Positions 1,004 through 2,660 of a stretch of DNA of 7,870 nt are shown here, in pieces. A model generated the notes under the pieces. That model saw only the letters and a program-made list of their open reading frames with translations, was not told the DNA's origin and made no database searches. How positions within the stretch are numbered: the first letter of the stretch is position 1; each line of letters starts with the position of its first letter. Origin of the DNA: Vulcanisaeta distributa. Lineage in GTDB: Archaea > Thermoproteota > Thermoprotei > Thermoproteales > Thermocladiaceae. Where the stretch lies: contig DAXY01000099.1 of NCBI GenBank assembly GCA_002506645.1, positions 1 through 7,870 on the forward strand, written 5' to 3'. The translations under genes were made by a program, and so were the position numbers.

Positions 1004-1438
1004 TCACTCCTCAGTATAACCCGTGTCCTCAGAATACTCACTCTCCTCACCATAGATATCCTCGTAACCTCCACCCTCGCCAAACTCCTCATTAGCCTCA
1101 CCGAGGGCTTCTGTTGATTCCTGCCCCTCATTCAGCAATGGGTTTGACTTCGTTGCTAATTGAGTAAGTGACACGGTGACCTCCTTCTTAGGCTTGATTT
1201 GGCCCTGGTAGTAGAGGTCTACGAACTTATTGAAGTAGTCCACGGGGAGCAATCCAGGTATGTAGTTGAATTCCGCCTCGAGACCGCAATTACCGCAGTT
1301 AACCAATACCTTCCCCTCCTTCCTATCAATCTTCACATTAACTAATGGCGCACCACAGTGCGGGCATGTGAATATCTTCGGCAGCGTCTTCTTGGGCCTA
1401 AGCAATAATTTCTTACGACTCTTCCTCCTACGACCCAT
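1004..1438 (-). CDS. Archaeal Elf1-like transcription elongation factor, zinc ribbon with acidic tail
   Basis: The 144-residue protein starts MGRRRKSRKKLLLRPKKTLP, the basic N-terminal tail typical of Elf1. A four-cysteine zinc ribbon follows: CPHC (C25, C28) and CGNC (C48, C51), with the strand KIDRKEGKVLVNC between them. Next is a segment resembling the Elf1 fold end, LPVDYFNKFVDLYYQG (about 64-79). The last 40 residues are strongly acidic and rich in Glu, Gly and Tyr, longer than the compact Elf1 core. Elf1 binds RNA polymerase near the DNA entry channel and aids elongation through obstacles; that role here is inferred by homology. The ATG at 1438 follows a TATATATA box by 30 nt. The gene reads into GGGP synthase, separated by 35 nt. 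A general zinc-ribbon protein is the alternative, but the basic tail plus ribbon spacing favours Elf1. Confidence 0.82.
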   Translation of the reverse strand: MGRRRKSRKKLLLRPKKTLPKIFTCPHCGAPLVNVKIDRKEGKVLVNCGNCGLEAEFNYIPGLLPVDYFNKFVDLYYQGQIKPKKEVTVSLTQLATKSNPLLNEGQESTEALGEANEEFGEGGGYEDIYGEESEYSEDTGYTEE

Positions 1439-1460
1439 CGAAGCCCCAACTAAGCCTTAG

Positions 1461-1480
1461 TATATATATCTTTTTCTTCC
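1461..1480 (-). promoter_or_regulatory. BRE/TATA promoter of Elf1 gene
   Basis: Reading the minus strand, a purine-rich BRE-like GGAAGAAAAA is followed by GATATATATA. The first T of the box (1468) is 30 nt before the ATG at 1438, so the mRNA is probably leaderless. This is the most canonical promoter in the window. Confidence 0.75.
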
Positions 1481-1518: not shown

Positions 1519-1575
1519 TAAGTCAGTCGGGTATGTTCTCGTCACTCATCCGCGTAACTCTGAATCATCATGCGT
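1519..1575 (-). ncRNA. C/D box sRNA (2'-O-methylation guide)
   Basis: On the minus strand the order and spacing of archaeal C/D guide RNAs are complete. C box ATGATGA is at 1571-1565. A 12-nt D' guide TTCAGAGTTACG (1564-1553) and a D' box variant CGGA (1552-1549) follow. After a 3-nt spacer come the C' variant GTGACGA (1545-1539), a 12-nt D guide GAACATACCCGA (1538-1527) and a canonical D box CTGA (1526-1523). Both guides are exactly 12 nt, the spacing set by the archaeal sRNP of L7Ae, Nop5 and fibrillarin. By the N-plus-five rule the D guide would methylate G in target TCGGG(TATGTTC), and the D' guide A in CGTAA(CTCTGAA). I could not assign the targets, which are probably rRNA or tRNA. No strong terminal stem is visible; the outer ends given are approximate. 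Confidence 0.8.
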
Positions 1576-1603
1576 ATCTCCCTAGCCTAAATAAGGGGGC
1601 GCG

Positions 1604-1617
1604 CTATTAAAATTAAG
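1604..1617. promoter_or_regulatory. AT-rich TATA-like element, possibly bidirectional
   Basis: CTATTAAAATTAAG reads as a TATA-like element on both strands. On the minus strand it would place transcription start near 1586, about 15 nt before the sRNA C box. On the plus strand it would start near 1632-1635, at the GTG of the putative small gene. A second minus-strand box, TTATTTA at 1594-1588, is closer to the sRNA but less well spaced. Confidence 0.35.
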
Positions 1618-1631
1618 CCCAGTCCATCGGT

Positions 1632-1756
1632 GTGGCCGTCATCGAGACGGTGGGTAGTGATTGGTGGCGTTTAACGACCTTATTAATAGTTCATGGGAGG
1701 CTGAGGCATCGAGGGAATACTTAAAAAACCATATTGAGGGTATAATTGATGCATGA
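1632..1756 (+). pseudogene. Possible small frameshifted gene before DUF92
   Basis: I do not recognise a product. From GTG 1632 the frame reads VAVIETVGSDW (to 1664) using codons typical of the window. Beyond that, the same frame turns to CGT, CGA and CTG codons that neighbouring genes avoid. A shift of one base at about 1662-1664 (TGATTGGTGG) moves into a frame reading VAFNDLINSSWEAEASREYL and then KNHIEGIIDA, ending with TGA at 1754-1756. That second part has AGG as its only arginine codon and a helical, amphipathic composition. Together they would make a roughly 41-residue protein overlapping the DUF92 ATG by 8 nt. Options are a decayed gene, a sequencing error, a separate 30-residue ORF starting at GTG 1664 (a GGTGGG purine run lies about 8 nt upstream), or chance. 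Confidence 0.25.
1720..1728 (+). promoter_or_regulatory. TATA-like box of DUF92 gene
   Basis: CTTAAAAAA has its first T (1721) 28 nt before the ATG at 1749, matching the leaderless spacing of other genes here. A GAGGG run at 1736-1740 could alternatively act as a ribosome binding site if the mRNA starts further upstream. Confidence 0.5.
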
Positions 1757-2660
1757 ATTAATCATGGGAATTACCTATTCTGTAATTACGTATTTAGTGT
1801 TCGCAATCGCGGCATTAGCCGCATCCGCGGTATTGGCCTACGCGGCATTAAGGGCTAGGGTAATTACTAGGGATGCCGTGGCGCCGTCAATGCTCGTGGG
1901 GTTCATGATACTCATTGGTGGGCTGCCATCAATACTACCGTTCGTAGTCTTCCTAGGTAGCTCGAGCTTCCTCACTAAGGTTGGTGTTGAGAGGAAGGAG
2001 GAGCTAGGCACTGCGGAGGATGTTAAGGGAAGGAATTGGAAGCAGGTACTGGCGGTCGGCTTGGTACCAGGCACATTAGCGTTATTGAGCGGCATAGCCT
2101 ATTTCACCCACGAATCAGCCATGTACCAGTTGTTCTCCATTGCGGCCGTAACGAGTATTGCCTACTCAAACGCCGATACTTGGGCATCCGAGTTGGGCGT
2201 TTTGAGTAGGTCAAGGCCCAGGTTAATAACGAGGCCCTGGACCACAGTTGACCCCGGCGTGTCAGGCGGCGTCACCCTACTTGGCGAGTTGAGCTCATTC
2301 CTCGGCTCATCCACGATAGCGCTCACTTACCTAGGGGTCCAATACCTGCTTAAATTCCTGAGTTACGCGGATTCGGTAAATGCGTGGTTAGTCCTAATCG
2401 TCCTAGTTCTAGGTTATTTGGGTGAGGTTCTTGACAGCGTCTTCGGGGCCTTGCTCCAGCCCAAGTATTGGTGCCCGAGGTGTGGCGTTATGACTGATAG
2501 GGAGGTTCACGTGTGTGGTGAAAGGGCTATGAGGATTATGGGTAATTATGACCTTGAGAATGAGGATGTGAACCTACTCGTATCGGCCATAACGGCGGCG
2601 TTATCAATAATCACCCTATTATTCCTAATAGGCCCCCACGTGGTCATACCCAACTTATAA
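1749..2660 (+). CDS. DUF92 family integral membrane protein (TMEM19/VTE6-like)
   Basis: This 303-residue polytopic membrane protein carries the DUF92 signatures. They are FLGSSSFLTKVGVERKEELG (68-87), RNWKQVLAVG (95-104), NADTWASELG (141-150), PRLIT...VDPGVSGGVTLLG (157-179), GEVLDSVFGALLQ (225-237) and a C-terminal C242PRC245...H254VC256G group that could bind zinc. About six or seven hydrophobic spans are visible, including the first near 10-34 and the last near 280-300. A characterised plant relative, VTE6, is a phytyl-phosphate kinase in tocopherol synthesis, and archaeal members are uncharacterised. Phosphorylation of a geranylgeranyl-type polyprenyl phosphate would suit an archaeal membrane and the nearby GGGP synthase, but this is inference. 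The ATG at 1749 is preferred over TTG 1746 because a TATA-like box lies 28 nt upstream. Confidence 0.9.
   Translation: MHELIMGITYSVITYLVFAIAALAASAVLAYAALRARVITRDAVAPSMLVGFMILIGGLPSILPFVVFLGSSSFLTKVGVERKEELGTAEDVKGRNWKQVLAVGLVPGTLALLSGIAYFTHESAMYQLFSIAAVTSIAYSNADTWASELGVLSRSRPRLITRPWTTVDPGVSGGVTLLGELSSFLGSSTIALTYLGVQYLLKFLSYADSVNAWLVLIVLVLGYLGEVLDSVFGALLQPKYWCPRCGVMTDREVHVCGERAMRIMGNYDLENEDVNLLVSAITAALSIITLLFLIGPHVVIPNL

What the first reader, a model, noticed from the sequence alone, without database searches (positions are those of the whole stretch)
1519..1575. Unannotated C/D box sRNA in the Elf1-DUF92 gap
The minus strand carries C, D', C' and D boxes with both guides exactly 12 nt and a 3-nt D'-C' spacer, the geometry of archaeal methylation guides. 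The D' (CGGA) and C' (GTGACGA) boxes are variant, so motif-strict scanners could miss it. Predicted methylated targets are G in TCGGGTATGTTC and A in CGTAACTCTGAA.
Basis: partly seen in the sequence, partly recalled or inferred. Interest (0 to 1): 0.7.

Follow-up and report, generated by a model that had tools for sequence, protein, structure and literature searches.

The report
Vulcanisaeta C/D box methylation-guide RNA gene
A tiny gene in a hot-spring archaeon very probably makes a guide RNA that directs two chemical marks onto an important part of the large ribosomal RNA; it is a new example of a well-known kind of RNA.

Summary
In detail: the minus strand at 1571-1523 carries C, 12-nt guide, D' (CGGA), 3-nt spacer, C' (GTGACGA), 12-nt guide, D. 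The C/D box sRNA reading is supported. In the window and six Vulcanisaeta loci the element is a conserved island in poorly alignable intergenic DNA. Of 101 genomes searched, 11 have a full-length homologue; 10 of the 11 lie between DUF92 and Elf1, and in the 11th the contig ends before Elf1. The guides match two sites 37 nt apart in relatives' 23S rRNA, equivalent to E. coli A1913 (helix 69) and G1950; 0 of 2000 shuffled guide pairs did so. Of 16 other C/D-like elements parsed, 9 carry the G1950 guide, 3 the A1913 guide, none both. No Rfam family reaches its cut-off. There is no RNA evidence, and the window's own rRNA is not held. Real, ordinary, a new member of a known kind.

The parts
1523..1571 (-). 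C/D box sRNA core, C box to D box; mature ends not known
1565..1571 (-). box C, ATGATGA
   Evidence: RTGATGA in all 7 aligned sequences
1553..1564 (-). D' guide TTCAGAGTTACG; predicted target 23S A1913 (E. coli numbering)
   Evidence: pairs unbroken from the 2nd to the 11th position counted from D'; 0 of 300 shuffled guides as good on G002 16S+23S
1549..1552 (-). box D', variant CGGA
   Evidence: CGGA, CAGA or CTGA in the 10 homologues that parse
1546..1548 (-). 3-nt D'-C' spacer
   Evidence: 3 or 4 nt in the 10 homologues that parse
1539..1545 (-). box C', variant GTGACGA
   Evidence: RTGANGA in the 10 homologues that parse
1527..1538 (-). D guide GAACATACCCGA; predicted target 23S G1950 (E. 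coli numbering), with one internal A.A mismatch to the 23S of relatives
   Evidence: on its own 19 of 300 shuffled guides reach this score
1523..1526 (-). box D, CTGA
   Evidence: invariant in the 7 sequences
1004..1438 (-). Elf1-like zinc-ribbon protein, downstream neighbour on the same strand
   Evidence: Pfam PF05129, E 5.3e-19
1460..1479 (-). probable Elf1 promoter (purine run plus A/T-rich element) between the sRNA and Elf1
   Evidence: sequence; similar in the other 6 sequences; function inferred by eye
1746..2660 (+). DUF92 membrane protein, divergent neighbour
   Evidence: Pfam PF01940, E 4.7e-62

Best explanation
It is a double-guide archaeal C/D box sRNA of Vulcanisaeta. The C/D and C'/D' motifs fold into kink-turn-type motifs that bind L7Ae, and Nop5 and fibrillarin complete the particle (inferred from the known family). 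The D' guide pairs with helix 69 of 23S rRNA and directs 2'-O-methylation of the residue equivalent to E. coli A1913; the D guide pairs 37 nt downstream and directs methylation of the equivalent of G1950. Shown here: boxes, geometry, conservation, synteny, complementarity in relatives, and the protein families in four relatives. Inferred: transcription, assembly and methylation.
For: Box order and geometry. Conserved island: 38 of the 49 columns from C to D are invariant in 7 sequences while most of the intergenic DNA around it aligns poorly by eye. Full-length homologue in 11 of 101 genomes, the score then falling from 38.4 to 29.3 bits; 6 of the 11 were used to build the model, 5 are new. 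Same place in 10 of 11, contig end in the 11th. The D' guide pairs over 10 unbroken positions with the 23S A1913 site; in G013 the next best of all 16S, 23S and 42 tRNA sites scores 2.0 penalty units. Both guides within 100 nt on G013 23S at penalty 1 or less: 0 of 2000 shuffled pairs. The target block is the same in the 7 homologue-carrying genomes whose 23S was read (G001, G002, G003, G011, G013, G014, G015). Fibrillarin, Nop and L7Ae-type families in 4 of 4 relatives (the L7Ae family is broad, three matches per genome). Helices 68, 69 and 71 are reported hotspots of predicted methylation, dense around A1912 in hyperthermophilic archaea (PMC4644070, section 7 read).
Against: No RNA data. The window's own genome and rRNA are not held, and 4 of the 11 homologue genomes gave no 23S (G004, G005, G006, G012). 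The D guide has an A.A mismatch at the 8th position from box D in the window, G001-G004 and G013 and alone is matched by 19 of 300 shuffles. A second, weaker site for the D' guide exists in 16S of G002 (penalty 1.5), not among the top sites of G003 or G013. In 5 homologues (L098-L102) the D' guide pairs over 9, not 10, positions. G015 has no recognisable D' box and a changed D guide (by eye). No promoter for the sRNA was established. The naked RNA does not fold better than shuffles (z -0.53, 61 of 200 shuffles as good), which neither supports nor excludes it.
Confidence: 0.93

Rival explanations
1. It is a C/D box sRNA, but in this organism only the D' guide (A1913) works well; the D guide has been weakened by its internal mismatch, and its site is unmodified or served by another sRNA.
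For: A.A mismatch at the 8th guide position in the window, G001-G004 and G013, whereas 5 other homologues (L098-L102) carry T there and pair over the whole 10-position core. The D guide alone is matched by 19 of 300 shuffles.
Against: The rest of the D guide, and C' and D, are largely kept in the 7 aligned sequences. The same guide occurs on other sRNAs in other genomes (9 of 16 parsed), so the site is worth guiding.
Confidence: 0.25
2. It is a leader or regulatory element of the elf1 transcript, a kink-turn that binds L7Ae to control Elf1 expression, and not a free guide RNA.
For: Same strand and directly upstream of elf1 in 10 of 11 homologues. Translational regulation by L7Ae in archaea is suggested by PMC5539422 (title and start of abstract in the listing).
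Against: Both guides are conserved and match 23S rRNA, which a leader would not need. A TATA-like element lies between the sRNA and elf1, so elf1 probably has its own start (inferred by eye).
Confidence: 0.05
3. It is a chance match to the box motifs.
For: Only that the boxes are short and two of them are variant.
Against: Conservation, synteny, 0 of 3000 shuffles with the motif and 0 of 2000 shuffled guide pairs.
Confidence: 0.01

Closest known systems
Archaeal C/D box methylation-guide sRNAs, as described for Pyrobaculum and Thermoproteus
   Same: Box order, 10-12 nt guides, dual guides aimed at rRNA sites within 100 nt of each other (PMC7994747, passages); target in a reported hotspot of 23S domain IV (PMC4644070, section 7).
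   Different: This pairing of the two guides was seen only in the 11 homologues and the window, not in the 16 other C/D-like elements parsed. The published Pyrobaculum families (Lui et al. 2018) could not be read, nor any supplement, so an equivalent there is not excluded.
Rfam sR11, sR7, sR9 (RF01150, RF01310, RF01312)
   Same: Same class and box layout; they align over the whole element.
   Different: 22.1, 21.1 and 20.9 bits against gathering scores of 39, 37 and 36. Among the relatives' loci scanned no match reached its cut-off.

Membership tests
Archaeal C/D box sRNA | C (RUGAUGA) and D (CUGA) boxes near the ends | tested here: met
   ATGATGA and CTGA; consensus from PMC7994747 passage
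Archaeal C/D box sRNA | Internal C' and D' boxes | tested here: met
   Variant CGGA and GTGACGA in the window; 10 of 11 homologues parse, G015 does not
Archaeal C/D box sRNA | Guides of 10-12 nt | tested here: met
   12 and 12 nt; range from PMC7994747 passage
Archaeal C/D box sRNA | Complementarity to a target RNA, with methylation opposite the 5th nt upstream of D or D' | tested here: met
   23S A1913 (10 unbroken pairs) and G1950 (one internal mismatch), tested on relatives' rRNA, not the window's own
Archaeal C/D box sRNA | L7Ae, Nop5 and fibrillarin in the organism | tested here: inconclusive
   Families found in 4 of 4 relatives searched; the window's own genome is not held
Archaeal C/D box sRNA | A stable small RNA, about 50-70 nt, in the methylation particle | not testable with these tools
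   No RNA data
Rfam sR11, sR7 or sR9 | Score at or above the family's gathering score | tested here: not met
   22.1, 21.1 and 20.9 bits against 39, 37 and 36

The most novel reading that the evidence does not exclude
A Vulcanisaeta guide RNA joins two ribosomal sites, A1913 and G1950, that other genomes cover with separate sRNAs, and one clade, to which the window belongs, has fixed a mismatch that tunes down or switches off the second site: a natural experiment on how guide pairs are assembled, kept and lost.
Probability: 0.25. Interest if true: 0.4.

Novelty: new member of a known kind. Interest (0 to 1): 0.25.

Why it matters
It gives a sound gene model for a conserved small RNA that no Rfam family reaches its cut-off on. 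It makes two exact, testable predictions of ribose methylation, in helix 69 and 37 nt further on, in a region reported to lie at the subunit interface (PMC4644070). It also shows the same two guides on different sRNAs in other genomes, in line with the reported dynamic evolution of guides. It does not change the picture of the class.

Tried and rejected
Rfam: no match at its cut-off for the window's element, for 11 relatives' loci, or for 12 further loci; the only window match above a cut-off was the tRNA. Other targets: the best tRNA site in G013 (42 tRNA genes, both strands) scores 2.5 penalty units for the D' guide and 3.0 for the D guide, against 0 and 1.0 for 23S, so tRNA targets were set aside. 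G010, listed near the top of the relatives but without a full match, is uninformative: neither Elf1 nor DUF92 was found there. Thermocladium and Caldivirga loci L007-L009: no full homologue, only partial matches elsewhere in their genomes. Pairing between the 5th base of C' and the 2nd of D' was considered, since the window's pair is C-G: among the window and the 10 homologues that parse it is C-G in 5, A-U in 1, U-G in 1 and C-A in 4, so not strict; the pairing rule is recalled, and my look for it in one paper gave no passage that states it. The idea that the D guide fits an intron-containing 23S: the seven 23S sequences read from homologue-carrying genomes show no intron there. Fold of the naked RNA: nothing beyond chance. 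A promoter of its own: looked at by eye only, undecided; the promoter scanner was not run. Tree of the neighbouring GGGPS gene: the mismatch carriers group together, but with support of only 47, so a single origin is consistent, not shown. Papers: searches of Vulcanisaeta with 'D box' (2 papers), 'sRNA' (4) and 'snoRNA' (5) listed nothing on this RNA as far as titles and abstract starts show; none of these was opened, and the library lacks most subscription papers.

Full report
What is there. The minus strand at 1571-1523 carries, in order, box C, a 12-nt guide, D', a 3-nt spacer, C', a 12-nt guide and box D. The pattern occurs once in the window and in none of 3000 dinucleotide-preserving shuffles, strict or loose; it was chosen after seeing the site. 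Neighbours are Elf1 (PF05129) downstream on the same strand and DUF92 (PF01940) divergent. The best named relatives of the window's GGGPS protein are from Vulcanisaeta, so the window is most likely from that genus or close to it; its own genome is not held.

Conservation. A GGGPS alignment of 19 sequences was used to scan genome contigs; 176 stretches encoded a relative, the best 80 were kept, and the first six are titled Vulcanisaeta. In those six and the window the element is conserved while most of the intergenic DNA around it aligns poorly, apart from the A/T-rich blocks next to DUF92 and Elf1. Of the 49 columns from C to D, 38 are invariant. A sequence-only model of the seven was run over 101 genomes (G002 and its relatives) with the stricter filters the tool uses for large sets. 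It gave matches at E 0.1 or better in 73 of 101, but a full-length match at 38 bits or more in 11. Six of the 11 are the genomes the model was built from (G001-G006); five are new (G011-G015). DUF92 and Elf1 lie on either side in 10 of 11; in L102 (G012) only DUF92 is found and the contig ends about 100 nt past the element. Ten of 11 parse with all four boxes. G015 does not: its D' box is not recognisable and its D guide has a further change (read by eye).

Targets. On the 16S and 23S rRNA of G002 and G003 the D' guide pairs unbroken from the 2nd to the 11th position with one 23S site, likewise in G013; 0 of 300 shuffled guides did as well on G002. The next best site is at penalty 1.5 in G002 16S and 2.0 in G013 23S. 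The D guide's best site is 37 nt further on, with one A.A mismatch at the 8th position; 19 of 300 shuffles did as well, so alone it proves little. Both guides at penalty 1 or less within 100 nt on the 23S of G013: 0 of 2000 shuffled pairs. The first guide position, next to the box, is unpaired for both window guides. Counting on E. coli rrlB gives A1913 and G1950. Methylation opposite the 5th nucleotide upstream of D or D' is the published rule (PMC7994747 and PMC7089733, passages); a 10-pair duplex is quoted as giving the highest methylation in vitro for an S. solfataricus enzyme (PMC7089733, passage). The target block is the same in the seven homologue-carrying genomes whose 23S was read; four of the 11 (G004, G005, G006, G012) gave no 23S match.

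The mismatch. The window, G001-G004 and G013 have A at the 8th position of the D guide; L098-L102 (G006, G005, G011, G014, G012) have T and pair over the whole 10-position core. Conversely L098-L102 have a mismatch at the 11th position of the D' guide, where the window has none (all scored against G013 rRNA). A tree of the GGGPS gene (G012 not included) groups the A carriers, support 47.

Other genomes. Of 41 segments examined (window, the 20 loci returned, and 20 weaker matches that I chose from its longer list), 27 gave a C/D parse and 14 did not. Of the 16 parsed segments outside the family's own 12 places, 9 have a D guide whose best site, on G013 rRNA, is G1950; 3 have a D' guide whose best site is A1913; 4 have neither; none has both. 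In G021 the two guides are on two separate elements (L189, L190; the C box of L190 is weak). This fits the reported dynamic evolution of guides in Pyrobaculum (PMC7994747, passages, citing Lui et al. 2018, which is not held).

Machinery and context. Fibrillarin, Nop and L7Ae-type families were found in 4 of 4 relatives searched; the L7Ae family is broad and gave three matches per genome. PMC4644070 (section 7 read) reports helices 68, 69 and 71 as hotspots of predicted methylation with many sites around A1912, so the target region is an expected one.

Verdict. It is a new member of a known kind. Transcription, assembly and methylation remain inferred.

Noticed in passing
L120 (G097), 23S rRNA: An insertion of about 1.1 kb, probably an rRNA intron, sits just after GTAACTCTGACTCTC, between the A1913 and G1950 sites.
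   Followed up: partly
L083 (G009, Caldivirga), 23S rRNA: The 23S match is about 4.1 kb long and the G1950 target is broken after CCGGGTA, probably by an intron, so a guide could pair fully only after splicing.
   Followed up: partly
window 1576-1709: The stretch between the sRNA and the DUF92 promoter is some 70-100 nt longer than in the six aligned relatives; no Rfam match there.
   Followed up: no
L204 (G004) and L205 (G011): A second C/D-like element in these genomes with the same CGGA and RTGACGA inner boxes; its D' guide matches another 23S site (position 1280 in G013) without a break.
   Followed up: partly
window 1720-1728: CTTAAAAAA before DUF92 is conserved in the seven aligned sequences, probably its TATA element.
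   Followed up: no
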